64,000 nucleotides of DNA, taken from the NCBI RefSeq assembly GCF_006376685.1, contig NZ_VEWL01000002.1, positions 372,001 to 436,000 of the forward strand. The letters run 5' to 3'. The notes under the pieces are model-generated. The model ran no database searches. It worked only from the letters and a program-made list of their open reading frames with translations, and was not told the origin of the DNA. Within the stretch, counting starts at the first letter, position 1; each line of letters starts with the position of its first letter. Positions 45,762 through 60,302 of the stretch are shown here, one piece after another. The position numbers and the translations under genes were made by a program. This stretch comes from Ochrobactrum teleogrylli. GTDB lineage: Bacteria; Pseudomonadota; Alphaproteobacteria; Rhizobiales; Rhizobiaceae.

Positions 45762-47101
45762 CAGAGCGAACCTCTCAATTGTGGATTAATCGAACGCTCA
45801 CGATCATCGGATCGGCGGCGATCGCCGGACGGAAGGCTTCGGCGTGTTTCGTACCCGTATTCCATATGCGGCGTACTGGCGGCATGAATGCCAAGGAACG
45901 CAGCCCACGTCCGGTCGGCGTGATCGTCGTCGCGCTCCGCCACAAATCGCGGCGCGCCGGTTGGAGATGTGACCTTGCGCAGTTTGTGCAGATCGGAGCG
46001 AAGCGGCACATTGCCCATCGGAATGCGAACAGTCCTGTCTTCGAAACGTTCCTTGCCGCCATTCGCCATGATCAGCTTGCTGCCGGTGCTAAACAGGACA
46101 CCCTCGACACGACGACCATAGCGTCGCAGCGCGTCCTCGACCACCTTCTCGCCCATGCCGGTCTGGTCGATGCAGGCCCGCGCCACACGATAACGCATCA
46201 TCACGTCATCAAAGGCGGCATCCATGTCGGCAAAGGTAGCGCGCTTCTGCTCAACGATCTCGCGACACCACAACACGTCGCCGATCTCTTCCCATACCCA
46301 GATCACATGAAGGTCATTGCGTCGGCCAATGTCGCGACCGACATAACATGCGTTGCCCTGATATCCTTCCGGGCTTCCAGCGGCGTCATCTTCAACTGAT
46401 GAAATCAGTTCATAGGATAGCCAGGCGCTCGCCTCGTCCAGATATTGCAGCTCATATTCCTGCGCCCAGGCATCTTCGTCGGCAATACCGGCACGCAGCT
46501 CCTCTATGTTGCGAGGCAAGCCGTCCCTGACCGCCTGATAGATATCGACAACATGCCGTGACCAGGTATCGTCATTGGCCGTGTCCAGCTCGAAGAATTT
46601 CCCGCTCTTGCCATTCGGTGTCGATGTGACGCGCAGCTTCCAGTCGGCCGAGATAACCGGGAAGAGCGCTTTCCAGATCGCATTACTGTCCTTGTGGAAT
46701 GCGAACTCATCCAAAAATACGTTGGCAGAGAAGCCGCGCGCCGTGTCGGGATTTGCTGGCAGTGCCGTAATACGGGTGCCATGCGGCAATGTCACTTCCA
46801 GCGCCTTGTAGCTGCCGGTGTCACCCTGCCAATCAAACTCGTTGGCGTCGAACGCCATGCCGTAAGCCTTGGCGTGAGGGTATATTCCTTCCAGCATGGC
46901 TTCACGGGCTTGACGTTCGCCACGGCTCAATATCACCCACCGTGTCCGCTGGCTCTTGATCGCATGCTCAAAACTGTCATCAACACATTCAAGTGTTGTC
47001 GTGAACGTCTTGCCGGTTTGGCGGGCAAACTTGCCAATTTTGAAACGGCTTTTATCCGTGAGCCAGCGGCGCTGATAGCCGTAAAGCAAAGGCTGTGTCA
47101 T
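45761..47101 (-). CDS. Terminase large subunit, Mu gp28-like
   Basis: A 446-residue packaging motor. The ATPase has FARQTGKTFTTTLE (Walker A-like), then FSANVFLDEFAFHKDSNAIW (Walker B with Asp-Glu) and TSTPNGKSGKF (coupling motif). The nuclease part has YVGRDIGRRNDLHVIWVWE and ACIDQTGMGEKVVEDA, with the metal-binding aspartates. It packages host-flanked DNA by a headful mechanism in Mu. Confidence 0.92.
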   Translation of the reverse strand: MTQPLLYGYQRRWLTDKSRFKIGKFARQTGKTFTTTLECVDDSFEHAIKSQRTRWVILSRGERQAREAMLEGIYPHAKAYGMAFDANEFDWQGDTGSYKALEVTLPHGTRITALPANPDTARGFSANVFLDEFAFHKDSNAIWKALFPVISADWKLRVTSTPNGKSGKFFELDTANDDTWSRHVVDIYQAVRDGLPRNIEELRAGIADEDAWAQEYELQYLDEASAWLSYELISSVEDDAAGSPEGYQGNACYVGRDIGRRNDLHVIWVWEEIGDVLWCREIVEQKRATFADMDAAFDDVMMRYRVARACIDQTGMGEKVVEDALRRYGRRVEGVLFSTGSKLIMANGGKERFEDRTVRIPMGNVPLRSDLHKLRKVTSPTGAPRFVAERDDDHADRTWAAFLGIHAASTPHMEYGYETRRSLPSGDRRRSDDRERSINPQLRGSL

Positions 47102-47676
47102 CAGGATGTCCCATAAGCTTCACGGATCATGCGCAGGATTTCTTGCCCATCGACCTTACGTCCAGCTTTCTCGACAGCGTCGGTCGCGTCACCGACCGCC
47201 TTCGCCAGCTTGGCTTTGGCTTCTTCCTCGGCCTTGCGGCGATGTTCGGCAGAATGGCGTTGCGCAACCACGGTTTCCTTATAGGCGCGTGCCAGCTCCA
47301 TGGCGTTCTTGGAATTAAGGCCATCGCCGTCAAGCAACTCATCAATAAGCGTTTTGAGGAACTCGCCGAGCACAATATCGGACTTGCTGATTTCTTCAGG
47401 CGTAAGCTTCTCCGCGATGCCTGCATAAATGTAACGGCGCTCCTCCAATTGAGAAGCACGTCGAGACAGACGCATGGCTTTACGGTTGAACGCCGATCTG
47501 GATATCGGGCCGATGCCTCTGACTTCCAGACGGTCATTCAGCTCAAAAAGAATATCCGCCTGGCTGCGGCGGCGTTCGTTGAGCTGTCCAATCGCCCAGA
47601 CCACATCGTCCTGGGCTTCTTCCGGCAATAGCTCCAGACTGTCGAGCCGGGAGCGGCCACGCCTGTCCTCTGCCAT
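47101..47676 (-). CDS. Mu gp27-like DUF3486 protein (terminase small subunit role)
   Basis: A 191-residue helical protein. It begins RRGRSRLDSLELLPEEAQDD, has ISRSAFNRKAMRL in a helix-turn-helix-like region, and a Lys/Ala-rich coiled-coil tail. DUF3486 is placed directly before the large terminase in Mu-type phages and is regarded as the small terminase. Confidence 0.83.
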   Translation of the reverse strand: MAEDRRGRSRLDSLELLPEEAQDDVVWAIGQLNERRRSQADILFELNDRLEVRGIGPISRSAFNRKAMRLSRRASQLEERRYIYAGIAEKLTPEEISKSDIVLGEFLKTLIDELLDGDGLNSKNAMELARAYKETVVAQRHSAEHRRKAEEEAKAKLAKAVGDATDAVEKAGRKVDGQEILRMIREAYGTS

Positions 47677-47678
47677 GG

Positions 47679-47975
47679 TCAGCCTCCGAGACCGGGCCGG
47701 GCCACACCCTCAATGATTGACCGGCGCTCGACATGGTCAAGTCCAGACTGGGTGAGACCTGCAATCACGACTGTGCCAGCTTCTGTCAGACGCACCGCGC
47801 CCAACTCCTCCAGCTTGCGCAATTGCGTGCGCACCCATTCGCGGGAACGGCGATGACCGAATGTCTCCAAAACCTTGGTGAGGATAGCCTCATTCAATGT
47901 GGTGTTGGTTTCCTGGGCGAGCGCCTTCAGAATCACCAGACGAGCATCTTCTGTGAGAAAATCGGCGAAGCTCAT
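47679..47975 (-). CDS. VpaChn25_0724-family phage protein (winged-helix type)
   Basis: A 98-residue protein with SFADFLTEDARLVILKALAQ at the start and HRRSREWVRTQLRKLEELGAV, a winged helix-like fold. The family is a regular member of Mu-type packaging modules (Mu gp26 position). Role unknown, perhaps DNA binding in packaging. Confidence 0.75.
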   Translation of the reverse strand: MSFADFLTEDARLVILKALAQETNTTLNEAILTKVLETFGHRRSREWVRTQLRKLEELGAVRLTEAGTVVIAGLTQSGLDHVERRSIIEGVARPGLGG

Positions 47976-48304
47976 TATGGCTGCCCCTTATTGATCAAAT
48001 AATCTTCAACGCGATGTACGGTGCGGCTCATAGACGAGATATTTTCTTCCATGCGACCGAACGATCCGCGAATCTCCGAAATCTCCAGCTTCAGATCGGT
48101 GAGCGCTTTTTCATCGGGCATGTGTTTCATCTCGGCCTTGATCTCAGTCAGTCCGTCTTCGACCACGCCGAGCCGCTGACTCACTAATTTCAGTTCGTCC
48201 GAATTCTGACGCGAGCCTGCGGTAAGCCATGCGTAAATCACAGTGCCAATCGAAATCAGCGTGGCGATGACGCCGCTCCAGTCCTTTAAAAACTGATGAT
48301 CCAT
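47975..48304 (-). CDS. DUF2730 membrane coiled-coil protein (Mu gp25 position)
   Basis: A 109-residue protein with one membrane helix (about 10-30, WSGVIATLISIGTVIYAWLT) and a coiled coil (residues 40-100). DUF2730 is a constant small gene of Mu-like phages, just after the lysis genes. ATG at 48304 overlaps the stop of the zinc-finger gene. Confidence 0.75.
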   Translation of the reverse strand: MDHQFLKDWSGVIATLISIGTVIYAWLTAGSRQNSDELKLVSQRLGVVEDGLTEIKAEMKHMPDEKALTDLKLEISEIRGSFGRMEENISSMSRTVHRVEDYLINKGQP

Positions 48305-48537
48305 CAACGCTGCCCCCGCTGTTTGCCCTGCCGCTCCAATTGTTGCTGGCACTGAATACAGCGCCTTGCCGATGGCAATGCAGCCCGACGCTCAAGTTCG
48401 ATATCGTCCCCGCAGGAAATACAGATATTCGAACCCTTCCGGCTCAGTTCTGTCTGCACGGCAGCAACGCCAGCCTCGCGCTCCTGTTCGGCGCGCAGGT
48501 CTGCCAGTTCATGTGCCTTGTTTCCCGCTTCCGTCAC
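48304..48537 (-). CDS. DksA/TraR-type C4 zinc-finger protein
   Basis: A 77-residue protein with CISC-X17-CIQC, the zinc finger of the TraR/DksA group, and an N-terminal helix of about 35 residues. TraR-like proteins bind the secondary channel of RNA polymerase and mimic DksA with ppGpp. Such genes are frequent in Mu-like phages. Confidence 0.8.
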   Translation of the reverse strand: MTEAGNKAHELADLRAEQEREAGVAAVQTELSRKGSNICISCGDDIELERRAALPSARRCIQCQQQLERQGKQRGQR

Positions 48538-48854
48538 TTTGGTCGCTCCGCTGGTACGGGGATGGATAACGGGACCGCGTCAACAGCAGCCACGGCGGCA
48601 GCGCGCCGGGCCTCGCAACCTGACAATGCGGATCGATCCTTCGCCCACATCGGCGTCAGTTCCTTGGCTGATAGCGCACGGTCGGGCAACGAGACAGGCG
48701 GGTCGCAAGGTTTGCGCGCTTCCTTCGGGATATCGGGCTTCACCTGATCAGTACGGAGAACCGGCTTTTCCGCCGAGGAACTGGTTGTTGAGCAGCCTTG
48801 TGCGATCGACATCGATGCCACTGCCAGGAGTGTCAGAAAGAGCCGCATTGGCAT
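48534..48854 (-). CDS. Rz1-like outer-membrane spanin lipoprotein
   Basis: A 106-residue lipoprotein precursor. The lipobox is IAQGC with Cys21 as the lipid site; the mature part is Pro-rich (EKPVLRTDQVKPDIPKEARK), as in Rz1. The gene starts within the last 107 bp of the Rz gene in another frame, the nested arrangement typical of two-component spanins. It fuses inner and outer membranes in lysis. Confidence 0.8.
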   Translation of the reverse strand: MPMRLFLTLLAVASMSIAQGCSTTSSSAEKPVLRTDQVKPDIPKEARKPCDPPVSLPDRALSAKELTPMWAKDRSALSGCEARRAAAVAAVDAVPLSIPVPAERPK

Positions 48855-49155
48855 CCTCCAATTGAGAGACTTGGTTCTTGAGGCGGGAGATTTCGGCTTG
48901 CGCCTTCTCGTTCAGGGCGCTCGCGGTTTTCATCTGCTCGATGATGTTCTTCGCAGCCATCTCATTGGCCTTGGCAATCTGCTCGGACCAATGAGCATCG
49001 CGGGCTTTCTCGGCGATTGCGACCGCATCGCCAATCGTATCGCGCAAGGTGCGGACAGCACCGAAAGCGAGAACTGCCGCCGCCAGAAGAACAATGGCGG
49101 CGATCATGATCTGCGAAGTCCATTTGCCAAACCATGCAGTGAGAGCTGCGATCAT
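48748..49155 (-). CDS. Rz-like inner-membrane spanin
   Basis: A 135-residue protein with one N-terminal membrane helix (about 15-38, IMIAAIVLLAAAVLAFGAV) and a periplasmic coiled coil (QAEISRLKNQVSQLEDANA). This is the Rz layout. The 3' part contains the Rz1 gene in another frame. Confidence 0.78.
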   Translation of the reverse strand: MIAALTAWFGKWTSQIMIAAIVLLAAAVLAFGAVRTLRDTIGDAVAIAEKARDAHWSEQIAKANEMAAKNIIEQMKTASALNEKAQAEISRLKNQVSQLEDANAALSDTPGSGIDVDRTRLLNNQFLGGKAGSPY

Positions 49156-49418
49156 GGTTTGCCCTCACGTCGATCGAATAAGAGTGCCTTTGCCTGTGTC
49201 CAATAATCGACAGAACCGAAACCGCGATGGACGCCAAGATTAGCAATGATGAGCATAACCATCGACGGCACGACGATCGGCGCGATTGCCACGGCCTGTT
49301 CGGAGCCGACCGACGCGGCACCAACGAGGGTCAGGATCACAGCCCAGGCGAGATAGAAGCTGCCCCAAAGATAGCGGCGGGTCGAGCGGTAGCCGGGTTC
49401 TTTGATCGGTTCGCTCAT
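49152..49418 (-). CDS. Putative holin
   Basis: An 88-residue protein with two hydrophobic segments (about 18-38 and 44-64: YLAWAVILTLVGAASV and AIAPIVVPSMVMLIIANLGV) and a basic C-terminus. Size and place between endolysin and spanins fit a class II holin. No family was recognised by motif. Confidence 0.65.
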   Translation of the reverse strand: MSEPIKEPGYRSTRRYLWGSFYLAWAVILTLVGAASVGSEQAVAIAPIVVPSMVMLIIANLGVHRGFGSVDYWTQAKALLFDRREGKP

Positions 49419-50251
49419 GCCGCGACCTCCGGCATGAACCGCGTCAGCTGTGCAAGCGTTTTGGCGCCGACAATCCCATCAGCAACCAGACGATAATCAC
49501 GCTGGAAAGCGATAACTGCCTGTTCGGTGCCGGGGCCAAAAATGCTGTCGATCGACAGATGATAAAATCCGGCACCACGAAGCGCACGCTGAAGGTCGGC
49601 AACCGCAAGGCCGCGCATTCCACGACGCAGAACCACATCGCCCGGATTTGTGGCAAGGTTGTCGGCCTGTAGCTCGGCGACAATGTCCTTTGCTTTGGCG
49701 AGATACGCGGCGCGGTTGGCCAAGCCATTCGTGCCGCCGTTGACGACTTTGGTGATCGCAACCAGGTTATCGTAGTCGGCAAGTACGTTGAGGTTTTTCG
49801 ATGACCAATAATAAAAGGCCGATAGAAGCGCCCACGGAAACTCAGCGAGCTTCTCAGGATACAGCAAGAAATCCGGAGACTTTGGGTCACGAGCACGCGA
49901 CCAACTATTGAACTTGCTGTGGTTCGAGCGGCCGGTGGTCTGAATAAGTCCGTGCCCACGAAAGCGTGGTCCGTCACCTTTCTGGGTGTTTCCCAGATCA
50001 GCCCGGCCTTCATAAGCTGCACCTGACGCATATTCAATGGTGGTACAAAAGCCATCGCTCTCATGCGCCACCTGGGCAAGAAAGTGCACAATGCGGAGCG
50101 CGGTCGTAACCTGAAATTCTTTCAGCAGGTCTGGCAACAATGGTCCGGCAGAAGCAATGATATGCTGCTGGCCTGCAATCTTCTTTACCTGCGCTTTGGG
50201 CGCGATCGCGGCAAGAACTGTGTGATTGATTTGGGATGCAAGGTCGGTCAC
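49415..50251 (-). CDS. Endolysin: GH19 glycoside hydrolase with peptidoglycan-binding domain
   Basis: A 278-residue endolysin. The catalytic GH19 domain (30-195) has AQVAHESDGF with the acid Glu64, and RFRGHGLIQTTGRSNH. The C-terminal part (205-270) is a PG_binding_1 domain (LRRGMRGLAVADLQRALRGAG, IDSIFGPGTEQAVIAFQRD). No signal peptide, so release is by the holin. The start is a GTG at 50251 with GGAGG upstream. Confidence 0.87.
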   Translation of the reverse strand: MTDLASQINHTVLAAIAPKAQVKKIAGQQHIIASAGPLLPDLLKEFQVTTALRIVHFLAQVAHESDGFCTTIEYASGAAYEGRADLGNTQKGDGPRFRGHGLIQTTGRSNHSKFNSWSRARDPKSPDFLLYPEKLAEFPWALLSAFYYWSSKNLNVLADYDNLVAITKVVNGGTNGLANRAAYLAKAKDIVAELQADNLATNPGDVVLRRGMRGLAVADLQRALRGAGFYHLSIDSIFGPGTEQAVIAFQRDYRLVADGIVGAKTLAQLTRFMPEVAA

Positions 50252-50286
50252 ATCACGCCCTCCGCGAAAAGCTCATTGAAGTCCAT

Positions 50287-50298
50287 GCCCACAAGGGC
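50287..50298 (-). promoter_or_regulatory. GCCC-N4-GGGC stem-loop before the endolysin gene
   Basis: A weaker copy of the late-gene stem-loop (4-bp core, loop TTGT on the minus strand), 36 bp upstream of the endolysin start. The flank on the gene side contains GAGCTTTTCGCGG, similar to the flanks of the two strong copies. It lies in the 117-bp gap after mor, at the place of Plys in Mu. Confidence 0.4.
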
Positions 50299-50368
50299 GG
50301 GTCTAACAACGGTTTTACGCGGGGCATTCAAGTCAGCCCATGCCGGAGCAATCGGGCGCTAGGATGAA

Positions 50369-50746
50369 CTATTCGGAAGGGAACATTTCTATCTGACGGT
50401 CGTCAGATTTCTTCGTGCGGTACTTGACCGGCGAACGGTTGAAGAGCTTTTCAACGCCGCTTTCAGTGATGCCTAACCTACGTGCAATTTGCGAGTTCGA
50501 CAAGCCATCCTGGTCACGGTAACGGCGTGCACGGATATCACGGACCATAGGCACGCTGATGTAGTCACCGCCATAGCGCCGGGAGAGCCTATTTGCAATA
50601 TCTGCGCCAACCGTTTCGATCAGTTGCGATCTATCAATATTGGATGGAACATAAAGGCGGATGCCCGCATGTTCCTCTGCAAGGCGGATCAAGTCGTCCT
50701 CACCAAGTAAGCTGAGCAACTCTGCCACAAGACGATGATCTTTCAC
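50369..50746 (-). CDS. mor: Mor-family middle/late transcription activator
   Basis: A 125-residue protein of the Mor/C family. The dimerisation part is followed by YGGDYISVPMVRDIRARRYR and a helix-turn-helix, LSNSQIARRLGITESGVEKLF. In Mu, Mor turns on middle transcription and C turns on late promoters. Only one member of the family is found here, so it may do both jobs. Confidence 0.87.
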   Translation of the reverse strand: MKDHRLVAELLSLLGEDDLIRLAEEHAGIRLYVPSNIDRSQLIETVGADIANRLSRRYGGDYISVPMVRDIRARRYRDQDGLSNSQIARRLGITESGVEKLFNRSPVKYRTKKSDDRQIEMFPSE

Positions 50747-50958
50747 TGTGGCCTCTCGATCTGTGCCGATATAGCCAGCTGGCGCGCGGTGACAGTCCGC
50801 AGACGGGCTTCCAGTTCGACACGTTTATGGGAGTGCGGCCGCATCAGGTTGATACGGCGCTGGAGGGTTTCACGTTCTGCCTGGAGACGATTGATCTCGG
50901 CCTGTTCAGGCGCAATGAACAGCGGCAGGTTAACCAGCGATGCTGAATGCTGAACCAT
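50743..50958 (-). CDS. Small helical phage protein before mor
   Basis: A 71-residue protein, starting MVQHSASLVNLP at 50958, with one long helical hairpin (EQAEINRLQAERETLQRRI, KRVELEARLRTVTARQL). Function unknown. Its stop overlaps the mor start by 4 bp. The longer frame to 51420 is antisense to the secreted-protein gene and is rejected. Confidence 0.55.
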   Translation of the reverse strand: MVQHSASLVNLPLFIAPEQAEINRLQAERETLQRRINLMRPHSHKRVELEARLRTVTARQLAISAQIERPQ

Positions 50959-51027
50959 TATCAAGCCCTCACCATTGCCAAAGTGCGGGAGCCGCGCTTT
51001 ATTGGAGGAAATTTGCAGGGGGTGAAT

Positions 51028-51348
51028 ATGAAACTGGTACTGGCTGGATTGGCACTTTTGGCATGTGGCGCTGTCGCCCGTGCCGATGATCTTTCTACGA
51101 TGCAACTCGCAAGCGGGCTCGGCAGCGTGCTGGCGGCCGAAGAACCCTGCGGCCTTTCGTTCGATCAAGGTGCGATTGAGAAATTCATCAATGCCAAGGT
51201 GCCAGCTGACAATCTTAATTTTGCGGGCACGTTGAATATGATGGTGTCTGGAGCGAAGCTTGAACTGGACGGAATGTCTGCGTCGCAAAAGACTGCGAAC
51301 TGCACCCAGGTCAAACGGGTCGCAAAATCTTACGGGTTCACGAACTGA
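51028..51348 (+). CDS. Small secreted protein carried by the prophage (moron-like)
   Basis: A 106-residue protein with a clear signal peptide (MKLVLAGLALLACGAVARA, cleavage before DDL). The mature part of about 87 residues has two cysteines (EEPCGL and ANCTQ) that could form a disulfide. AGGGGG is upstream of the ATG. It is the only plus-strand gene apart from the repressor and sits between two early/middle genes on the other strand, so it likely has its own promoter and is expressed in the lysogen. Role unknown: envelope, superinfection exclusion or fitness. Confidence 0.72.
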   Translation: MKLVLAGLALLACGAVARADDLSTMQLASGLGSVLAAEEPCGLSFDQGAIEKFINAKVPADNLNFAGTLNMMVSGAKLELDGMSASQKTANCTQVKRVAKSYGFTN

Positions 51349-51416
51349 CCACGCCACAAAGCCAATAACCTGCTGGCTGGCTATCTCGACATTGGAAACG
51401 GCGCGGATCGTGAAAG

Positions 51417-52064
51417 TCATGCCTGCTTGGCCTTCCTGATCTCATTGCCAAGCTCGTTCATGACGGACTGCCAATCCTTCCCGGTCATGGTTTCCAGCCT
51501 GAAGGGCTCGTTCCAAAAAAAGCAAAGACTGCGCACGTAGGTTTCGAAGCCACCCGGTGCCGGTAATTTGCCAAGCTGCGATAAAATGCTCCATTGAGCG
51601 GCGGCAACCTTGGCGGCGTCCATGCGCCGCCAAGGTTCCATATCGCTTGTTTCCATCCAGACCGGGCCCACCTTTCGCTCGATCCACTTTTTCAGCCCTT
51701 CAATGGCAGAGCGGGCATCAGCAGCATGATGAACGAAACGAACATCATCGACGCCAGTTTGTCGCAGAACGAAAGCAATCAGTGCTTCGTCTGATCGGTT
51801 CTCAAAAACACCAAGGTTCCATCCAGCAATCCAAAGCGCCTGGAGCTTGGCGGCAAACTTGCCTTCAAGGCGCTTTCGACTAGCCTTTGAAGCTGGCTTG
51901 AAGCCTTGACGACGAAACTCATCAATCAGCTTCAGGCGTTGGCTTTCCGTCATCGCTGCTGAAGAGTGCTTGCCGGTCACGCGGATGCAGATGGCGCGAT
52001 AGGTGTCGTCATCCAGACCGAGCTGCTTTTTAGCAACGTGTATGGCGGCGGTGGATTTCATCAC
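51417..52064 (-). CDS. gemA: GemA-like regulator (Mu gp16, DUF1018)
   Basis: A 215-residue protein. The N-terminal domain (IHVAKKQLGLDDDTYRAICI, SSAAMTESQRLKLIDEFRRQGF) is diagnostic of Mu GemA. GemA affects host gene expression and DNA supercoiling in Mu. The C-terminal 100 residues are less conserved. Confidence 0.85.
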   Translation of the reverse strand: MMKSTAAIHVAKKQLGLDDDTYRAICIRVTGKHSSAAMTESQRLKLIDEFRRQGFKPASKASRKRLEGKFAAKLQALWIAGWNLGVFENRSDEALIAFVLRQTGVDDVRFVHHAADARSAIEGLKKWIERKVGPVWMETSDMEPWRRMDAAKVAAAQWSILSQLGKLPAPGGFETYVRSLCFFWNEPFRLETMTGKDWQSVMNELGNEIRKAKQA

Positions 52065-52282
52065 GCCAACCTTTCCATATCGGTGTGGAATGGAAACGGT
52101 GTGGGCAGCGGCTCATCGTCACCGATCGGTTCACCATCAGCATCGCAATAAGACGCACGATCCGAGCTGCAGCAATCCGCATGGATATAGCCGCCTTCGC
52201 TCCATTCATTGAGGACCATTTCACCAACGTTGATGGCCTGTTCACAGCCCAGGCATATGTACTGGCTGACAGCGGGCTTCAT
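52061..52282 (-). CDS. Small cysteine-rich protein, probably zinc-binding
   Basis: A 73-residue protein with CLGC near the N-terminus and HADCC about 25 residues later, an arrangement that suits one zinc ion. It overlaps both neighbours by 4 bp. Function unknown. Confidence 0.6.
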   Translation of the reverse strand: MKPAVSQYICLGCEQAINVGEMVLNEWSEGGYIHADCCSSDRASYCDADGEPIGDDEPLPTPFPFHTDMERLA

Positions 52283-52596
52283 TGTACTGTCTCCTGGTCA
52301 GGGGTGGGTGATACGCCAAGCATTTTGAGGCAAAGGGAGCTGTGCCCGTGTTCCCGAGCATGCTTCATGATTGCGAAAATCAAGCCGTCTACGTTTTCAC
52401 CACATTGTGCAGCAGTGCACATCAGGCGTGCGTGGTAACCACTATTCTCTGCGAGGAGGATGGTTGAAGCCGTAGCGCCTGGGTCATATTCGACGTTCGC
52501 AACAAATGACATGCCGCGCTGCTTACATTCTTCTGCAAGCTGATGCAGACGAGGCGCGATGATGTCATCATAAAATTTTTCGTTCTCAGTGGTCAT
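52279..52596 (-). CDS. Hypothetical early phage protein
   Basis: A 105-residue protein that starts MTTENEKFYDDIIAPRLHQL at 52596, overlapping the GcrA-like gene by 4 bp. It is alpha/beta by composition and has two cysteines (MCTAAQC). I do not recognise a family. A longer frame up to 52731 is antiparallel overlap and not supported. Confidence 0.55.
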   Translation of the reverse strand: MTTENEKFYDDIIAPRLHQLAEECKQRGMSFVANVEYDPGATASTILLAENSGYHARLMCTAAQCGENVDGLIFAIMKHAREHGHSSLCLKMLGVSPTPDQETVQ

Positions 52597-53132
52597 GCTG
52601 CACCTGCCTTCGACGCACGCACAAAGACTCGGCGATGATGATGCTCGCAGAAGCTGGAGCCGCTTTTCACCGGATGGGCGCAAAACAGATGCTGTTCGCC
52701 CTTCGCCGCGTTGTTGACGGCAAACCGACATTGACGCAGCGATATATCGGTCAATGGCAAGCCGAGCGGCTCAATTGGCGGATCGATGGCTGGCAATTCT
52801 TCGCAGACGAAAACTGGCTCCGGCGCGGCAACAGGTGCGACGATGACTGGCGCGGCTTGTACCTGCCGAGCTGGAGACCGACGCGCAGTAGTCTTCATGC
52901 GACCGGGTTTATAGGGTGATGACTCTTTCTTCGGCAGGCGTGCACCACCGACGCCACCACCAAGGCCGATCTCGCTCAGCATCTTGTCGCGGTGAATGAT
53001 GCCAATTACGGCATTACGGCTAACACCGAGGCGGGAACTGATCTGGCCAGCTGAAAGACCTTCGCGGAGTAGATTGGCAACGGAAAGCTTGCGCTCTTGT
53101 GTCCAGGTGGAAGGTTGCGGATGGTTGCTCAT
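52593..53132 (-). CDS. GcrA-family cell-cycle regulator homologue on the prophage
   Basis: A 179-residue protein. The N-terminal helix-turn-helix TWTQERKLSVANLLREGLSA, GQISSRLGVSRNAVIGIIHR is that of GcrA. The middle is a Pro/Ala linker. The C-terminal part SLRQCRFAVNN...FCAHPV...SFCEHHHRRVF matches the sigma-70-binding, Cys/His-bearing end of GcrA. Host GcrA binds GANTC-methylated promoters with sigma-70 and controls ctrA and division genes. The phage copy has both ends of the protein and roughly the normal length (Caulobacter GcrA has 173). It may retune host transcription or the phage's own. Confidence 0.85.
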   Translation of the reverse strand: MSNHPQPSTWTQERKLSVANLLREGLSAGQISSRLGVSRNAVIGIIHRDKMLSEIGLGGGVGGARLPKKESSPYKPGRMKTTARRSPARQVQAAPVIVAPVAAPEPVFVCEELPAIDPPIEPLGLPLTDISLRQCRFAVNNAAKGEQHLFCAHPVKSGSSFCEHHHRRVFVRASKAGAA

Positions 53133-53563
53133 GCTGCACCTGCATTCGCTTTTTGCCGGGCATGATCGGCTTTGGCCGCATTGATTACGGCGTCGAAACC
53201 CGCTTCGATAGTGTCAGCATAAACCCAAATAATACGACGCCGCCCAGGGCCACTTACAAACGTGCTGTCGTCAAGATAATCGCGAGGTTCCCAATCTCCG
53301 TAGAAAATGAAACCCTTTTCATTCCCAAATTGGAGCGCATCTAGAAACTGTTCGGGTGTGGGCCAATGCGGACCACTGCATAGTTTTCGCAATGCTGGAA
53401 GAGCATCAAATATTGGGTGAATTCTGTCTGTATAACCAAGATCATTCGTGAATTCTTCAAGCCAGTCCGGAACGTTTTCCGTTGCCAGTCCCTGCAACGG
53501 GTAGATCGCAACTACGTTTGCTTGGTTGTCGAATAGCTGACAGGTTTGTTTTGAAACGAACAT
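53129..53563 (-). CDS. Hypothetical early phage protein
   Basis: A 144-residue protein without a recognised domain. It is rich in aromatic residues (GFIFYGDWEPRDYLDD, RRRIIWVYADTIE). Start overlaps nothing; stop overlaps the GcrA-like gene by 4 bp. It is part of the early operon. Confidence 0.55.
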   Translation of the reverse strand: MFVSKQTCQLFDNQANVVAIYPLQGLATENVPDWLEEFTNDLGYTDRIHPIFDALPALRKLCSGPHWPTPEQFLDALQFGNEKGFIFYGDWEPRDYLDDSTFVSGPGRRRIIWVYADTIEAGFDAVINAAKADHARQKANAGAA

Positions 53564-53572
53564 GGTGTCACC

Positions 53573-54238
53573 TCAAGCCTTGGCGATGTCTACGGTGACA
53601 GCAGTCCACTCATCCTGAACGGAAGCGCGCTCGTAGAACCGGACGTATTGTTTCGAATATTGAACGTCGATGGCGTCCTCGATGGCGCGCATGGCGTCCT
53701 TCCAGCGCTGATCGGAAATATCGAGCTTGGTCAGCTTCTTGATTTCCTTCAGGTTGATTTTGCCTTCCTTTTCCGTATCGAACGCGCGGGTGATGATGGC
53801 GCGGATTTCAGCGCGCGCGCCGTCCGTCCATTCATTCAGGCACTCATCAATGAGGCTTTTCGCGACCTGCAATTCCGGGCCTGCGACCTCAAAATCGTTG
53901 ATACTGACTTTTACCATCATCAGCCCGTCGATGGTCTGATAGGTTCGGTTGCCCTTCACGCCGCCGGGCCGAGCGTTGTATTCCTGCTCAAGCACTTCAT
54001 CCAGGCCGTCGAGGTCAGACATACTGTGCTTGCGGAAACGGCTGATCTGCGTCGAAATTTCCTTCGCATAACCCATCACCTTGCGGACCGTCTCATCGCG
54101 GAGCTTGTCGGCGGGCTTCACCAGTTCGAGCGGTACCAGTGCGCCTTTGGCATTTGCCATGTATCGCTTGCCATTTACGAGGGTGATGCCCTGCTCTGGT
54201 TGTTCTTCCAAGATGCATGCTGCGAGTGCTTCAGACAT
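53573..54238 (-). CDS. DUF3164 early protein
   Basis: A 221-residue protein. LVNGKRYMANAKGALVPLELVKPADKLRDE at the start and NRTYQTIDGLMMVKVSIND in the middle are diagnostic of DUF3164, a regular early gene of Mu-like phages between B and gemA. Biochemical role unknown; the family is sometimes mislabelled as a sulfate transporter. Confidence 0.82.
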   Translation of the reverse strand: MSEALAACILEEQPEQGITLVNGKRYMANAKGALVPLELVKPADKLRDETVRKVMGYAKEISTQISRFRKHSMSDLDGLDEVLEQEYNARPGGVKGNRTYQTIDGLMMVKVSINDFEVAGPELQVAKSLIDECLNEWTDGARAEIRAIITRAFDTEKEGKINLKEIKKLTKLDISDQRWKDAMRAIEDAIDVQYSKQYVRFYERASVQDEWTAVTVDIAKA

Positions 54239-54251
54239 TGGCTATGTCCTT

Positions 54252-54551
54252 TCAGGGTTGGGTTTTAATGGGAGAACCGAACCGGTTGAGAAACACCACA
54301 TTGGTGCCGGGCCGGGTCGCTTCTTCGATTGTGATGGTGACGATGGGATGCCGCTGCATGACCCGATCGACCTGTCGCAGTCGCGCCACTTCGTGGCCGA
54401 GGATTTGCGCGGTATGGCCGAGGCACATGTAAAAGTCGGCAAGGTTGCGAATGTCGATCGGCAGAAACAATCTGCCCTTTTCCTCGAACTGGAGGACGTT
54501 GCGGCGGGCTTGAAAAAGGGTCTCGCTGACTTCGTAAGGATCGCGGTTCAT
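54252..54551 (-). CDS. Hypothetical early phage protein
   Basis: A 99-residue protein, mixed alpha/beta (RRNVLQFEEKGRLFLPIDI, NLADFYMCLGHTAQILGHEV). It overlaps the upstream gene by 4 bp. No family recognised. Confidence 0.55.
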   Translation of the reverse strand: MNRDPYEVSETLFQARRNVLQFEEKGRLFLPIDIRNLADFYMCLGHTAQILGHEVARLRQVDRVMQRHPIVTITIEEATRPGTNVVFLNRFGSPIKTQP

Positions 54552-54835
54552 CGACGCCCCCCGAAGTCTGGCCGAATGACCTTGCCGTCATGTGTCGCCA
54601 CCGGAGCGTTGAAAATCTTGGTCGCCTCGGTTTCCATGAAAGCGCGGCCCGCACGATCGGCTTCCAGAAGTCGAAACCCCGTCAGCTCCATTTCCATTGA
54701 TGTGGCGAGTTCGGAACAAAGTGAGAGCTTGGCATAAACATCGGCAAAGCGATGCGGTGGCATCGGCTGATCGATGTCGTACTGCCCCAACTCGTCGGCG
54801 ATGGATTTGAGGATGGTGGATAGCTCAATGCCCAT
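54548..54835 (-). CDS. Hypothetical early phage protein
   Basis: A 95-residue protein, helical at the N-terminus (LSTILKSIADELGQYDID, RFADVYAKLSLCSELATSME). Its ATG shares a base with the MuB-type stop codon. No family recognised. Confidence 0.55.
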   Translation of the reverse strand: MGIELSTILKSIADELGQYDIDQPMPPHRFADVYAKLSLCSELATSMEMELTGFRLLEADRAGRAFMETEATKIFNAPVATHDGKVIRPDFGGRR

Positions 54836-55863
54836 TACACCAAGTCCTCAACATCACGGTTTTCCCATGCGGCCTTGATGAACTGAAACGAAACTTCTTC
54901 GCCCGCGCCGAGTGCGACCATGCTTGCGAGTTTCATGGTCTTGTCGATCTGGCGAAGTGCGCCGCCCTTCATGCCGATGCCGAGCAGAAATTTGACACTC
55001 TCCGGTTCGGTTACGCCCCAGGCGCTGATGAATGCCTGCAAATCTTCCTTGATGGGCTTGCTATAGCGCAGGCGCTTACCGATACGGCTTTTCAGCTGAG
55101 CGTGTGATGGTCCATCGGCGCGCTTGGCAAAACGGCTATGGATTTCGTCATTGCCGACAAGCGCCACACCGCAATTGAAAACATCCACAAAATGGCGAAG
55201 CTGATTGATCGCCTCGTCCTGTAGGTTCTGCGCTTCATCTACAATCAACAGTGTCGGGGTACTGGAACGACCAAGCCGGTTGCCGATTGCGCGGGTGAGC
55301 TTGGCGGGATTGTGCTGAATGACATCCAGTTCCGCTGCCAGATCGACCAGCATGCCATTCACGGTTTTGGTGTGTGGCGACATCGTCACCATGTATGTGT
55401 GCGGACGTGTGGCCCGATAGTGGCGGCAAGTCATCGTCTTGCCCATGCCCGCGCCGATCGTAATCATGACAAGTTCTGGCTGAACCTGCGCCCACTTCAA
55501 CGCATCCATAATTTCATCAGAAGTGCGGGTCTTGAAAAAGGCCGGAGATGTTGGGAGCGCGCTCAATTCTGCGGCATCGTCCAGTGCATCAAGCCACTGT
55601 TGAACGGTCACGTTCTGGATGTCCAAACGACCGGGATACTTGCCTGAATACCAGAGTGAGAATGTGCTGTCCGCCATGCCCACGCGGCGGGCAACTTCCG
55701 CCTTCGGCCATTCATTTCGCGTCGCGATCTCGCGAACCCTATCAACAAGCGACCACCAGATATCGATATCCGTTTGCGAACGATTGCCCGATAGTTCCGG
55801 CTGGGTCGAAGGCCGGGACCACGCAATGTTCTTGTTGGATGTTGTGTTGTTGACGTCTTTCAT
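54835..55863 (-). CDS. MuB-like AAA+ target-selection ATPase
   Basis: A 342-residue protein. The N-terminal part has a helix-turn-helix (WPKAEVARRVGMADSTFSLW), then the ATPase with Walker A IGAGMGKT (about 140) and Walker B LLIVDEAQNL (about 208), and a helical C-terminal domain. MuB coats target DNA, delivers it to the transposase and gives target immunity. It lies 38 bp after the transposase gene. Confidence 0.9.
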   Translation of the reverse strand: MKDVNNTTSNKNIAWSRPSTQPELSGNRSQTDIDIWWSLVDRVREIATRNEWPKAEVARRVGMADSTFSLWYSGKYPGRLDIQNVTVQQWLDALDDAAELSALPTSPAFFKTRTSDEIMDALKWAQVQPELVMITIGAGMGKTMTCRHYRATRPHTYMVTMSPHTKTVNGMLVDLAAELDVIQHNPAKLTRAIGNRLGRSSTPTLLIVDEAQNLQDEAINQLRHFVDVFNCGVALVGNDEIHSRFAKRADGPSHAQLKSRIGKRLRYSKPIKEDLQAFISAWGVTEPESVKFLLGIGMKGGALRQIDKTMKLASMVALGAGEEVSFQFIKAAWENRDVEDLV

Positions 55864-55901
55864 TTAAGGTTCCTTGCATTGTTTGGGCCCTATCGGGCTG
55901 A

Positions 55902-57917
55902 TTATCGGGCGGGATCACTCCCGCCCTTTTTTTTGGAACCGTACTCACTACTTACCGGCTCATGCTTCCCTTGTGGGAACTGGATCACGGAAGGCTCCTC
56001 GCCAGCGAGCTTGCGCATCGCACGGGCAAAGCCGTCCTCGAATTTCTGTTGGCTGATGGCATCGACTGCCGTTTCTTCCTTCATCGCGAGGTTGCCGTGC
56101 GCGATGCGTGTAACTTTCGGGCGCACCATTTCCGGTGCCTTCGCTGTCTTCTCGCCCTGGTAAATCAACTCGCCCAACTGCTGAGCTGACAGCTTGCGCT
56201 TGGCGTCGGCAGCTGCCTGCAAGCTTTTCTGATAGTCGCGGCGGGCGCGGCTGTGTGTGCGAGCTGCATCAAGGTCGTTGAAGCCAGCATCGGCAATGCA
56301 AGGCGCATCGCAGATCAGGACATTCTTCATGTCGTAGACCTTGATTGACGTATGCAGATTGTCGGGATCGAAGCGGATCGTCACCTTTTGTCCGGCCCAC
56401 TGGTTGAGTTCCAAGCTCCAGTAACGGTTGCCCTGGAAGTGCACCTCGCCGCTGCCCTTCTTGGTACGCAATACTTCTGAAGCGAGCAGCCAAAGGGACT
56501 TCTGTGCGGCGGTAGGCCAGCGCACGATTGCCGTTTCCATGCTGGCAAGGAAAGTCTCATCAAAGCTGCGGCCTGCGCAGTTTACGGCGCGTCTCCCTGC
56601 CTGTGCGTTGTGGTCCGCGATCTGCGCGGCAACATGCATACGGAAATCTTCCAGCGGCACGGCGCGGGATGCGTAGTTTTCCGGTTTGGCGTCGGGCCGG
56701 TTGCCGGTGTAGGCGCCTGCGCAGAATGGGTGCTTGGCGATCATATCCGCCAGATCGCGGAAGGCACGTTCAATCGGCTTGGACTGACCGGAGTATGGTG
56801 TGGTCCAATGCATATTGACGCCGAGTGTCGTCAGCAGACCGCGCGGGTCTTCTTCCTTCACCTTGAAGCGAAAGCGTGTAACGCTGCCACCCGATATCCA
56901 TTTCGAAGCGAAGGCCCGCCCATTGTCGAGATAGATATCATCGGGAATGCCATAGGTTTCCACCATGTCACCAATGACGAGGCGAACGGCTTCCCACGTT
57001 TCAGCGTCAGACAATCGCCAAGCGACAATCTTGCCGGAATAGAGGTCCTGGATGACTAGCATGTACATGCGCACAGGCGTTTCCGACCATGGCACTTTGA
57101 CAAACACGTCGATCTTGTGGCCATCCATGTTCACCATCTGCATGGCATGCAAGTGCGTGCGGGTGCGGCGCTGCGCCGGATAGAGGGTCTTGGCTTTCTC
57201 CTTGCCTTCGCGGGCAAGTGTCTGCACGGCATCCGTCACTTCCGCATCGAGGCGACGGCGCAAGGCGCGCTCAGAAGGCACCGGCGACCAATTCCGCTTG
57301 GCCGCGACCTTTACCATCCGGCGATAACAAGCCGAGAAGCTCGGACGTTCTGGCCGCAGATAATCAGATGTCAGAAAGTCCCATGCTTCATCATGGCATT
57401 CCGATCGTTGTGCATTGCTGGCGAACGATGGTGCAAGCGCGGCGAGCCAATCCGATCGATCACATCCCTCGACAAGCGACCACCAACTATAGAGCGAACG
57501 GATACCAACGTTGAACCGACTGCGCGCCAGTTCCATGGCAACGTTCACTTTCAACCCGCTTAAGCTGATCAATTCGTCAGCAAAGCGCAGAGCTTCGAGG
57601 CGGCGTTCACAACGAGCTTTATGCTCCATTGAAAGCCCCTCATAACGTGCCCATAAAGCTGCCTTCTTGGCGGTATGAAGGTCGCGATCGTCATTCGCCG
57701 GTGCATCATGAACCACGATAAGGCGTGTCTGTGCGGATTTGGGCAGAAGCGAGATATGGTATTCCCATGTCGGCTTTGTCTTGCCGTTCTCGCGACGCGC
57801 CAATTCGGGGTTGGCCTGACGCTTGCGGCGAAACACCTTGTCCAACCCCTTTTCGGAAGTCGGCAAATCGGGCAGGCCGACCGTTGCGAGTTCCGCGATG
57901 GTGAACCACTCTTTCAT
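55902..57917 (-). CDS. MuA-like DDE transposase
   Basis: A 671-residue transposase (Mu A has 663). The N-terminal MuA-type winged helix is at 1-70, then end-binding helices. The catalytic triad is Asp265 (NMDGHKID), Asp331 (YLDNGRAFASKW) and Glu383 (KPIERAFRD). The beta-barrel (RFDPDNLHTSIKVYDMKN) and the Lys/Arg-rich C-terminal part follow. It cuts and joins the phage ends for integration and replicative transposition. It overlaps the gene upstream by 4 bp. Confidence 0.95.
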   Translation of the reverse strand: MKEWFTIAELATVGLPDLPTSEKGLDKVFRRKRQANPELARRENGKTKPTWEYHISLLPKSAQTRLIVVHDAPANDDRDLHTAKKAALWARYEGLSMEHKARCERRLEALRFADELISLSGLKVNVAMELARSRFNVGIRSLYSWWSLVEGCDRSDWLAALAPSFASNAQRSECHDEAWDFLTSDYLRPERPSFSACYRRMVKVAAKRNWSPVPSERALRRRLDAEVTDAVQTLAREGKEKAKTLYPAQRRTRTHLHAMQMVNMDGHKIDVFVKVPWSETPVRMYMLVIQDLYSGKIVAWRLSDAETWEAVRLVIGDMVETYGIPDDIYLDNGRAFASKWISGGSVTRFRFKVKEEDPRGLLTTLGVNMHWTTPYSGQSKPIERAFRDLADMIAKHPFCAGAYTGNRPDAKPENYASRAVPLEDFRMHVAAQIADHNAQAGRRAVNCAGRSFDETFLASMETAIVRWPTAAQKSLWLLASEVLRTKKGSGEVHFQGNRYWSLELNQWAGQKVTIRFDPDNLHTSIKVYDMKNVLICDAPCIADAGFNDLDAARTHSRARRDYQKSLQAAADAKRKLSAQQLGELIYQGEKTAKAPEMVRPKVTRIAHGNLAMKEETAVDAISQQKFEDGFARAMRKLAGEEPSVIQFPQGKHEPVSSEYGSKKKGGSDPAR

Positions 57918-58378
57918 GGCCGCCCCCGCGTCTTGAGATTGACGGGCTTCGACTGGAGCGATTTGAGCTTCGCCTTGATTTCCCGCTGATCTTGCTGAAG
58001 CTTGGCAATCTCTGCGAGGCGAGCTTCATCCCCTTCCAGTAGCGTCAAGCCATCTTCGGCAACAACAAAATCCCACAGCCAGACTGCGCCGGTTGCCCGG
58101 ACAAATGCCTTGAAGCGCACCAGACTGATATCGTGAGACGTGCGGCTCTCAGCGGTGTAGGCATCCAGTGCCGCTTTCGTCAGGTTGGGAATGCCGAGAT
58201 ATTGCGCCATACTGGCTGCAATGACGGCGCGCTCGTAAGGGCACTGTCGAATTGCCTCCGACATAGCCCGCCGTAGTTTGGAGCGAAAACGCGGCAGATC
58301 AATTTGCGATACAGGCGAGCGAACCGGAAACAGCGGCTCGCGGAACAAGTCAAATTGTTCAGACTGAAGCTTTGTCAT
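57914..58378 (-). CDS. Hypothetical early phage protein upstream of the transposase
   Basis: A 154-residue protein. EQFDLFREPLFPVRSPVSQI near the start, FRSKLRRAMSEAIRQCPYER in the middle, and a C-terminal coiled coil (ARLAEIAKLQQDQREIKAKL). It overlaps both neighbours by 4 bp. A family of this type is known beside MuA genes of alphaproteobacterial phages, without function. Confidence 0.6.
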   Translation of the reverse strand: MTKLQSEQFDLFREPLFPVRSPVSQIDLPRFRSKLRRAMSEAIRQCPYERAVIAASMAQYLGIPNLTKAALDAYTAESRTSHDISLVRFKAFVRATGAVWLWDFVVAEDGLTLLEGDEARLAEIAKLQQDQREIKAKLKSLQSKPVNLKTRGRP

Positions 58379-59175
58379 GCTGCATCCTCCTCGGGTGTAG
58401 CCAAGCCAATATGCTGCTGGAAGCGCGCTTTTGTTTCGGTGTTGGCGCGGCTCCAAAGGTCAACCATGTCGGAGAAAATCTTTTCCTGCTTGTTGACCGC
58501 AGATGGCGGCAGCGTATCGCCGATCAGAGAAAGGGCGCGCTTCAGATCGCCTTCCTCGCGAAAGGCGATAGCTGTCCGGCGTTGCATCGCTGGATCGAGC
58601 TTGGCGAGTTTCAAAAGCTCGGATTGATTATCTGCGATATCGGTGCCGCGAATGGCTGCCCGAAGATCGGGATGGATATTCTGCGCGATCAGATTGAGAC
58701 GCTTTATCGACGGGACTGAAACCCCCATCCGGTCAGCGACATGGGCTGAAAAACCACCCGAAATAATAGGGTCAAGTTGATCCTGTTTTGGTCGCCCACC
58801 CTTGATCTCGCCGTGCTTCTCCTCCCACAGCTCGCGGTATTTTTGGACAAAAATCGCCCGATCAATCACCGACAGTTCATTGCGGAAAAGATTTTCCGTG
58901 ACTTCCTGAAGGGCGGCTTCGGTCTTATCAGCCTCAACCACCAGAACATCAATTTCCTCGTCGCCGTTGATGACAACCGCGCGGAGGCGATGCGCACCAG
59001 CAATAAGGGTGTACTTCCCGCCCTTGGCATTCGGCGTGAAACGAACCGTGATGGGATTTAAAAGCCCATGCTCCGCGATGGATAAAGCAATCGCCTGGGC
59101 ATGGTCTTCTTCGACTTGGCGAAGCCGGTCGCCGACCACGATATCAACAATGGCTATACGCTTGAACTCGGCCAT
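58375..59175 (-). CDS. ParB/Spo0J-like nuclease-fold protein
   Basis: A 266-residue protein that starts MAEFKRIAIVDIVVGDRLRQ. The ParB N-domain has LIAGAHRLRAVV and the helix ENLFRNELSVIDRAIFVQKY, then a helix-turn-helix region near 150 (VADRMGVSVPSIKRL). Plasmid and phage ParB relatives bind DNA and may hydrolyse CTP or act as nucleases. No parA is present. A role in phage DNA handling or regulation is likely. Confidence 0.82.
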   Translation of the reverse strand: MAEFKRIAIVDIVVGDRLRQVEEDHAQAIALSIAEHGLLNPITVRFTPNAKGGKYTLIAGAHRLRAVVINGDEEIDVLVVEADKTEAALQEVTENLFRNELSVIDRAIFVQKYRELWEEKHGEIKGGRPKQDQLDPIISGGFSAHVADRMGVSVPSIKRLNLIAQNIHPDLRAAIRGTDIADNQSELLKLAKLDPAMQRRTAIAFREEGDLKRALSLIGDTLPPSAVNKQEKIFSDMVDLWSRANTETKARFQQHIGLATPEEDAA

Positions 59176-59528
59176 TATGCTGCTGCCTTTTCCAATTGTT
59201 TCTCGAAAAGGTTGACTGCGCGCGACGCCATGCGACGATAGGCAGCCTCGAATGTCGGATTTTCGATGCGGCAATCGACTGCGCGAATGGCGAAAGAAAT
59301 CGAGGTGCGCTGGCGCTGTTGCATGGCAACTATCCGCCTCTTTGGCACGCCGAAGTCGGTCGCCATGATATGAATGGCGATCTGACGAGCGAGCATTGCA
59401 TCAAACCACTGATGCGGCGGGTCGATGATGTCGCGGAGCGCAAGATGACGAAAGCCCGTCTGCACTCCAGCATAACAACAGGCCAGCATGACCTGTAAGC
59501 GTTCCTGTTCTGAATAGGGGTTGAACAT
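59175..59528 (-). CDS. DnaA domain IV-like DNA-binding protein
   Basis: A 117-residue protein. Residues 45-110 (MLARQIAIHIMATDFGVPKR, then RQRTSISFAIRAVD) resemble the helix-turn-helix and signature region of DnaA domain IV, with SISFAIRAV in place of DHTTVLHA. No ATPase part exists. It would bind DNA, perhaps DnaA boxes. The resemblance is by eye and moderate. Confidence 0.5.
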   Translation of the reverse strand: MFNPYSEQERLQVMLACCYAGVQTGFRHLALRDIIDPPHQWFDAMLARQIAIHIMATDFGVPKRRIVAMQQRQRTSISFAIRAVDCRIENPTFEAAYRRMASRAVNLFEKQLEKAAA

Positions 59529-59531
59529 CGC

Positions 59532-59687
59532 TCACCCCGCGAAATATCGAGTAAAGGAAATGATCACCGCAGCTGTGGCCGCAAGCGTGATCCACGTCAG
59601 CGGTGCGAGAGAAGCAATCAAACTCATGCGTCTATTGGGAAACGTGAAGCAGTTTCCCACGTCGATTTTGTCATCGCGTTTCGGCAT
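59532..59687 (-). CDS. Small single-pass membrane protein
   Basis: A 51-residue protein starting MPKRDDKIDVGNCFTFPNRR with GAGG 6 bp upstream, followed by one hydrophobic helix (SLIASLAPLTWITLAATAAV) and a short tail. It lies 3 bp before the DnaA-like gene. A longer reading frame from 59858 exists but its first half looks non-coding. Confidence 0.5.
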   Translation of the reverse strand: MPKRDDKIDVGNCFTFPNRRMSLIASLAPLTWITLAATAAVIISFTRYFAG

Positions 59688-59854
59688 TGTGCGCCTCGTT
59701 ATTGTGGGAGATTGTTTGGGCCGTGGCGCGGTGCCAGCATACGGATAACAGCCGGGACGGACCCTGCGGGGGCAATATCCGTCCTGTCGGACACACGGTT
59801 TGTGGTGACCGAAATCAATGGCTAGAGTATCCTGGCAGACACCGCGCCACACCA

Positions 59855-60148: not shown

Positions 60149-60302
60149 TTGCGTCTCCTTCAGGGAGCGGATGTTGGCGCATCCGCTTTTTGTTGGTCTT
60201 TGTTTGTGCAATTCCAGTCTGACTAATCAGGCTGATAATGTAGGTATGTAGCAAAAGTTTGCCAGTTGCAAGCAAAACTTTGCTACAGACGAAGGAGCAG
60301 CT
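60149..60302. promoter_or_regulatory. Divergent control region between ner and the repressor gene
   Basis: This 154-bp region carries both promoters. A 41-bp imperfect palindrome lies at 60247-60287: TGTAGCAAAAGTTTGC and GCAAAACTTTGCTACA, each arm itself nearly symmetric (GCAAA/TTTGC). It overlaps the area just upstream of the repressor start, as in an operator with two half-sites. GATAAT at 60233 could be a -10 element. Confidence 0.65.

What the first reader, a model, noticed from the sequence alone, without database searches (positions are those of the whole stretch)
52593..53132. Prophage carries a GcrA homologue with both functional ends
GcrA is the alphaproteobacterial sigma-70 partner that reads GANTC methylation and drives ctrA and division genes. 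A phage copy in the early operon, with HTH and sigma-binding end kept, may redirect the host cell cycle or RNA polymerase during lytic growth. It stands about 33 kb from the host ctrA, whose promoter region here is packed with GANTC sites.
Basis: partly seen in the sequence, partly recalled or inferred. Interest (0 to 1): 0.72.

Follow-up and report, generated by a model that had tools for sequence, protein, structure and literature searches.

The report
Phage version of a cell-cycle regulator
A virus dormant in a bacterial chromosome carries its own, strongly altered relative of the host's cell-cycle switch GcrA; phage copies of this switch were already known, but this one belongs to a separate lineage whose polymerase-facing end has been rebuilt.

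Summary
The gene is real. Window 52593-53132 (- strand, 179 aa) encodes a GcrA-family protein (PF07750, 70.9 bits, cut-off 26.9) with a helix-turn-helix end and a C-terminal domain homologous to the solved sigma-interacting domain. It lies in the presumed early operon of an apparently complete Mu-like prophage (24227-61404), upstream of gemA and mor, and is under purifying selection, strongest in the C-terminal domain. "Both functional ends kept" holds for the folds only: of 20 residues invariant in 46 chromosomal GcrAs it keeps 8, against 19 in phiCbK's copy. It is no recent capture of the host gene; it belongs to a lineage of phages and prophage-like loci in which C-x-[FWY]-[AP]-V-N replaces chromosomal C-x-W-P-x-G-x-P. 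The prophage has few GANTC sites and none in its presumed early and late promoter intervals, so reading methyl-GANTC on phage DNA is unlikely. The nearby ctrA is real but uninformative. Best reading: a phage sigma-70 co-factor with altered DNA specificity; no binding was tested. Phage GcrA genes are in print since 2012: a new variant of a known kind.

The parts
52593..53132 (-). GcrA-family protein of the Mu-like prophage (179 aa)
   Evidence: Pfam PF07750 70.9 bits; PDB GcrA 7ye1_G; model with confident N- and C-terminal domains; translation
52980..53102 (-). helix-turn-helix end (residues about 11-51) with SRNAVIGIIHR
   Evidence: profile match to 5yiu_A, E 4.8e-14; helices 12-23, 28-35, 39-48 in the model; coordinates computed by hand
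52608..52766 (-). C-terminal (sigma-interacting-like) domain, residues about 123-175, with C135, C151, C162, H165 and FAVN in place of WPxG
   Evidence: profile match to 5yix_B, E 3.8e-11; pLDDT about 90; motif tables
52279..52596 (-). next gene, 105 aa if it starts at MTTENEK; that start overlaps the gcrA stop by 4 bp
   Evidence: sequence; weak phrog_20111 match begins at its residue 2
53129..53563 (-). gene just upstream, 4-bp overlap with the gcrA start; no family match
53573..54238 (-). DUF3164 gene
   Evidence: PF11363 218.8 bits
51417..52064 (-). GemA
   Evidence: PF06252 110.8 bits
50743..51420 (-). ORF between gemA and mor, partly conserved in gcrA-bearing relatives
50369..50746 (-). 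Mor-type late activator
   Evidence: PF08765 27 bits, cut-off 24.9; phrog_836
50252..50368 (-). mor-endolysin interval with conserved [GA][CT]GTAAAA[CA] element at 50320; presumed late promoter; no GANTC
   Evidence: alignment of 13 rows; motif and GANTC scans
54835..55863 (-). MuB-like transposition protein
   Evidence: PF09077, phrog_296
55902..57917 (-). MuA-like transposase
   Evidence: PF02914, PF09039, PF09299
24740..25570 (-). D12-class N6-adenine methyltransferase at the prophage right end
   Evidence: PF02086 81 bits; phrog_56; relatives in the B. haematophila prophage and POA1180
24227..61404 (-). whole Mu-like prophage, TG...CA ends, CCAAC at 24222-24226 and 61405-61409
   Evidence: script on the ends; similarity to phage POA1180 starts at 24227; checked

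Best explanation
A phage-encoded member of the GcrA family, made from the presumed early operon of a Mu-like phage. Its C-terminal domain most likely docks on the host's primary sigma factor, as the solved GcrA domain does (inferred from homology and fold, not shown). Its helix-turn-helix end most likely no longer reads methylated GANTC (inferred from residue loss and scarcity of sites) but another DNA feature, at phage or host promoters. It would act as an early-made co-factor that shifts RNA polymerase toward the phage's needs, beside GemA and the Mor activator. Shown by computation: profile-level family membership, predicted folds, operon-like position, purifying selection, a lineage apart from chromosomal GcrA. 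Inferred: sigma binding, DNA specificity, timing, effect.
For: Profile matches to full-length GcrA (7.3e-32), its DNA-binding domain (4.8e-14) and its sigma-interacting domain 5yix_B (3.8e-11). AlphaFold model with pLDDT about 90 at both ends; best PDB match is GcrA 7ye1_G, E 0.027, probability 0.96. Median dN/dS: C-terminal domain 0.048, DNA-binding end 0.121, linker 0.176. gcrA within 1 kb upstream of gemA in 11 of 11 first viral loci, again in L177, and as a canonical-type copy in L274. R48 and C135, C151, C162, H165 are invariant, besides the start Met, in 23 aligned phage and prophage sequences.
Against: No binding or expression data. 12 of 20 residues invariant in canonical GcrA are replaced, 8 of 12 in the sigma-side domain, so the partner may have changed. 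The 11 other Mor-bearing regions examined in the host family all lack it, as do isolate POA1180 and loci L178-L181: Mu-like phages can do without it. Foldseek against PDB gave no match below E 0.001.
Confidence: 0.5

Rival explanations
1. A decoy or brake: it binds sigma-70 region 2 but does not activate host GcrA promoters, so it displaces host GcrA and halts the host cycle during lytic growth.
For: The C-terminal domain is the most constrained part. C-terminal-only GcrA matches with open frames of 84-104 aa occur in 5 of 35 genus genomes; the one in this host scores 48.3 bits for PF07750. Lysine of the presumed recognition helix lost.
Against: The DNA-binding end is also under purifying selection (0.121) and is confidently modelled as a helix-turn-helix, which a pure decoy would not need.
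Confidence: 0.2
2. One reading: it reads methylated GANTC on host DNA and turns on ctrA and division genes, as GcrA does.
For: SRNAVIG core and H-R kept; the host has one PF01555 methyltransferase, 232 bits, which may be CcrM, and a GANTC-rich region upstream of ctrA. A canonical-type copy (19 of 20 residues) sits upstream of gemA in phage L274.
Against: Only 4 of 8 invariant DNA-end and 4 of 12 invariant sigma-end residues kept; few GANTC sites in phage DNA, though this does not bear on host targets; lineage apart from chromosomal GcrA.
Confidence: 0.15
3. It binds DNA, but its C-terminal Cys-Cys-Cys-His domain has taken a partner other than sigma-70.
For: In the 11 Mu-type rows the WPxGxP of canonical GcrA is replaced by a uniform FAVNNAAKGEQHLFC block.
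Against: Significant profile match to the sigma-bound domain 5yix_B; the model's best PDB match is GcrA.
Confidence: 0.15

Closest known systems
Chromosomal GcrA (C. crescentus; host copy at G000:C23:46613-47161)
   Same: Two-domain layout, Pfam family, Cys-Cys-Cys-His positions
   Different: 28.9% identity to the host copy over residues 5-170; 12 of 20 invariant residues replaced, no WPxGxP, one residue fewer before the SRNAVIG helix
phiCbK gp222 and relatives (Gill et al. 2012, PMC3556154, passages)
   Same: Phage-encoded GcrA-family protein proposed there to act on the host
   Different: phiCbK copy keeps 19 of 20 invariant residues and falls with chromosomal GcrAs in the tree; phage genome of 215,710 bases
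GcrA-like genes of Agrobacterium phage Atu_ph08, phiLM21-like prophages, brucellaphage Y17, Rhizobium phage RHph_Y1_10
   Same: Phage-borne GcrA-like genes already annotated (passages in PMC6630229, PMC12429752, PMC11836647; record)
   Different: Not described as Mu-like in what I saw; no analysis of the sigma-side motif in the passages seen
Ochrobactrum phage POA1180
   Same: Closest isolate by MuA DNA: protein identities MuA 71%, MuB 68%, D12 methyltransferase 82%, endolysin 64%
   Different: No GcrA match; only a weak Mor match (4.6e-5 by phmmer; none by tblastn); no match to the ORF between gemA and mor; no GTAAAA element in the 17.7 kb read

Membership tests
GcrA family (PF07750) | Score above the Pfam gathering cut-off | tested here: met
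   70.9 bits against 26.9
GcrA family (PF07750) | N-terminal helix-turn-helix | tested here: met
GcrA family (PF07750) | C-terminal domain homologous to the sigma-interacting domain | tested here: met
   5yix_B E 3.8e-11 by profile; confident model
Canonical cell-cycle GcrA (orthologue) | Residues invariant in the 46 chromosomal GcrAs compared | tested here: not met
   8 of 20 kept
Canonical cell-cycle GcrA (orthologue) | Groups with chromosomal GcrA in a tree | tested here: not met
   With 14 other phage or prophage-like rows, apart from the 46 canonical rows, 99/85
Canonical cell-cycle GcrA (orthologue) | NCBIfam equivalog NF050816 cut-off (280 bits) | tested here: inconclusive
   49.3 bits, but the host's own GcrA also falls below, 155.3
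Canonical cell-cycle GcrA (orthologue) | Binding to sigma-70 domain 2 | not testable with these tools
   no complex prediction or assay available
Canonical cell-cycle GcrA (orthologue) | Preference for m6A GANTC | not testable with these tools
   indirect only: few GANTC sites, lost lysine
Mu-like transposable phage | MuA/MuB transposition genes, GemA, Mor, Mu F-like head protein | tested here: met
Mu-like transposable phage | TG...CA ends with 5-bp target duplication | tested here: met
   24227-61404 with CCAAC: one of 3 candidate pairs, chosen because similarity to POA1180 starts at 24227; no empty site found

The most novel reading that the evidence does not exclude
The VN-type GcrAs are a phage-borne class of sigma-70 co-factors that no longer depend on CcrM methylation; in this Mu-like lineage the protein works with its matching Mor at the conserved GTAAAA late element, so that early GcrA plus Mor form a two-part late-gene switch, movable as one cassette between phages with unrelated transposases.
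Probability: 0.12. Interest if true: 0.65.

Novelty: new variant of a known kind. Interest (0 to 1): 0.42.

Why it matters
GcrA is one of the few described activators that act through sigma region 2 (review PMC7403470, passages). A lineage that keeps the fold under strong selection while replacing residues shared by the chromosomal copies is a natural experiment on which residues carry sigma binding and which carry methyl-GANTC reading. It also turns a published speculation (phages using GcrA to steer the host cycle, PMC3556154) into a concrete comparison of canonical-type phage copies (phiCbK, L274) with rebuilt ones, in L274 beside the same gemA gene.

Tried and rejected
Writer-reader pair with the phage methyltransferase: rejected as specific. 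The D12 enzyme is also in gcrA-less POA1180 and in the record of gcrA-less L180. PF02086 is found in 2 of 51 GcrA-bearing phage records, many of them fragments, and weakly in L177's record; PF01555 in 9 of 51.

A conserved GANTC inside phage gcrA (10 of 11 viral loci): rejected as a signal. It falls on the Glu-Ser codons of the ESSPYK stretch, and L016, which lacks it, has Ala-Ser there.

Late element as proof of a gcrA link: not accepted. L274 carries a (canonical-type) gcrA but no such element, and L168 (gemA 88%, endolysin 76%; its upstream part is not held, so gcrA is unknown) has none either. The element may follow the Mor type alone.

Proximity to ctrA: rejected as evidence.

Empty insertion site: the left-flank DNA was found in only 2 other genomes of 35, at 65%, so no empty site could be shown.

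First structure model, from 10 close sequences, gave no usable C-terminal domain (pLDDT about 40); the second, from 23 sequences, did. The Foldseek hit 7ye2_G (45 columns, rmsd 1.9) is probably the sigma domain, but the table does not say which part aligned.

Rows dropped or wrong: L128 and L132 used a wrong ORF and are left out; four long-branch rows were dropped; 10 sequences give 45 pairs, of which 38-41 passed the limits on dS. In one search the classes come from simple patterns, and some 'other' rows belong to one of them (L132 is VN).

Papers: passages only, for PMC3556154, PMC7403470, PMC12429752, PMC9437464, PMC6630229, PMC7987155, PMC3667746, PMC6917491, PMC11836647, PMC5492332, PMC12407980. 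The GcrA structure paper (PMC5887438) is not held, so its residue contacts were not used. The gem-operon paper (Ghelardini 1994) was seen only as a reference title in PMC12407980. Searches behind 'not found in print'. Recalled, from no call: the label 'Ner-like', the Mu operon model (early/late timing), that these Brucella species were formerly called Ochrobactrum.

Full report
What is there. The ORF at 52593-53132, minus strand, encodes 179 aa. It matches Pfam GcrA over almost the whole profile with 70.9 bits (cut-off 26.9). The same genome holds its own canonical GcrA (219.5 bits, contig 23) and a third, C-terminal-only match (46.7 bits, contig 2). Chance is excluded: a profile of 23 aligned sequences, the window's and phage or prophage relatives, finds solved C. 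crescentus GcrA at 7.3e-32, its DNA-binding domain at 4.8e-14 and the chain 5yix_B at 3.8e-11; a review lists 5YIX as the GcrA-sigma structure (PMC7403470, passages).

Where it sits. Neighbours are MuA- and MuB-like transposition proteins, DUF3164, GemA, a Mor-type activator and an endolysin, with a small HTH repressor gene (Ner-like by recall) and a second repressor-like gene at the left end, and a Mu F-like head protein. The element runs from 24227 to 61404 with TG...CA ends and the 5-bp repeat CCAAC on both sides; this was one of three candidate pairs, chosen because similarity to phage POA1180 begins at 24227. gcrA overlaps the gene before it by 4 bp, and the gene after it by 4 bp if that gene starts at 52596. 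Early expression is inferred from the Mu layout, not shown. Named genomes with close relatives are Brucella haematophila and B. pseudogrignonensis, the latter with two such loci; I infer a host of that (Ochrobactrum-type) group.

How widespread. A first search of viral contigs gave 11 relatives, 70-100% identical, one of them this same prophage. In all 11 gemA follows within 1 kb; mor is seen in 10 of 11, the eleventh locus ending before it. The transposition genes differ: only the window's own copy matches MuA fully, two match weakly over a fifth of it, L011 does not reach that far, and seven give no match at E 1e-4; related prophages match at 1e-5 to 1e-7 by phmmer. So gcrA, gemA, mor and endolysin look like a cassette that moves apart from the transposition genes. 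In the genus, 3 of 35 genomes carry this Mu type (4 copies). A broader search gave 48 viral loci, and one with chromosomal GcrAs gave 153, of which 80 were kept; the sets overlap. In the phages collection 32 records match host GcrA at E 0.01, but only one matches the window protein.

A separate lineage. In a tree of 68 rows the 11 Mu-type proteins are one group (96/95) and join four others from prophage-like or unassigned surroundings (99/85), apart from the 46 chromosomal GcrAs; phiCbK's copy lies with the chromosomal ones. In a second tree of 78 rows, after four long-branch rows were dropped, the 25 proteins with C-x-[FWYH]-[AP]-[VIL]-N and the 53 with C-x-[FWY]-[PA]-x-G lie on two sides of one branch; support 74/83 is not strong, several phage rows have long branches, and the motif columns were part of the data. 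Of 20 residues invariant in the 46 chromosomal proteins the window protein keeps 8, the other Mu-type rows 8-9, phiCbK 19. Median dN/dS is 0.048 in the C-terminal domain (41 pairs), 0.121 in the DNA-binding end (39) and 0.176 in the linker (38).

Structure. With 23 sequences the model is confident at both ends (pLDDT about 90) and low between. The best PDB match is GcrA 7ye1_G, E 0.027, with none below 0.001; in the viral library 9 matches lie below 0.001, 7 of them named GcrA and 2 unnamed.

DNA sites. The prophage holds 25 GANTC against 98 expected from a Markov model, the early part (50252-60302) 3 against 26.6; host 1-24000 has 51 against 71.0. Five other host stretches lie at 0.21-0.65 of expectation, the lowest being the short one at 61500-64000, and gcrA-less Mu-like loci L178-L181 at 0.31-0.57, so scarcity of GANTC is not tied to gcrA. 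The ner-repressor and mor-endolysin intervals of the window hold no GANTC, nor do any of 13 aligned mor-endolysin rows. That interval has a conserved [GA][CT]GTAAAA[CA] element, found once on the coding strand in 12 of 12 gcrA-bearing loci that cover it (L006-L015, L162, L177; L006 is this prophage, L013 and L014 are near-copies). It is absent from POA1180's stretch, L168, L178-L181 and L274.

Is it tied to Mor? Results cut both ways. POA1180 shares MuA, MuB, methyltransferase and endolysin with the window but has no GcrA, only a weak Mor match, and no element. Yet the 11 other family regions with related Mor (44-53%) have no gcrA in 12-kb windows; 10 of the 11 show a GemA match. L177 has a diverged VN-type copy (45%) in the same slot. 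L274, Mu-like by its GemA and Mor, has a canonical-type copy (19 of 20 residues) upstream of gemA but no element. This suggests that a GcrA next to gemA was taken up more than once, and that the element may follow Mor alone.

Judgement. Family member: yes at the Pfam level. Cell-cycle GcrA orthologue: no. Mechanism: most likely a phage sigma co-factor with altered DNA specificity; decoy, faithful GcrA mimic and changed partner remain open. Phage GcrA-like genes and the idea of host-cycle steering are in print (PMC3556154, PMC9437464, PMC6630229, PMC11836647; passages). Only one held paper has both 'Mu-like' and 'GcrA' (PMC12429752), and its GcrA passage is a table row on phiLM21-like prophages. 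I found no text on the VN-type domain in the ten searches listed under Tried and rejected; most subscription papers are not in that library.

Noticed in passing
window 24740-25570: D12-class (Dam-like) adenine methyltransferase at the prophage right end; relatives in the B. haematophila prophage and in POA1180.
   Followed up: partly
L106:6741-7055 (host contig 2): Free-standing C-terminal GcrA domain (104 aa) beside a 262-aa ORF without Pfam match; C-terminal-only matches in 5 of 35 genus genomes. Could be a natural GcrA competitor.
   Followed up: partly
L274:3711-4181: GemA- and Mor-bearing phage with a canonical-type GcrA upstream of gemA instead of the VN type.
   Followed up: partly
window 50320: Conserved [GA][CT]GTAAAA[CA] element between mor and endolysin, with variable dyad-like GCC...GGC repeats upstream.
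   Followed up: partly
window 24227-61404: Few GANTC sites in the prophage (0.25 of expectation, against 0.72 in host 1-24000; but 0.21 in the short host stretch 61500-64000).
   Followed up: partly
L100:5809-6318 and L101 (G171, G167): Another VN-type GcrA in prophage-like surroundings of the same genus.
   Followed up: partly
window 58375-59274: ParB-like gene in the early region of the Mu-like prophage.
   Followed up: no
viral structure library: Brucella phage EF4 has two short proteins named GcrA-like (111 and 119 aa), as if the two domains were split.
   Followed up: no
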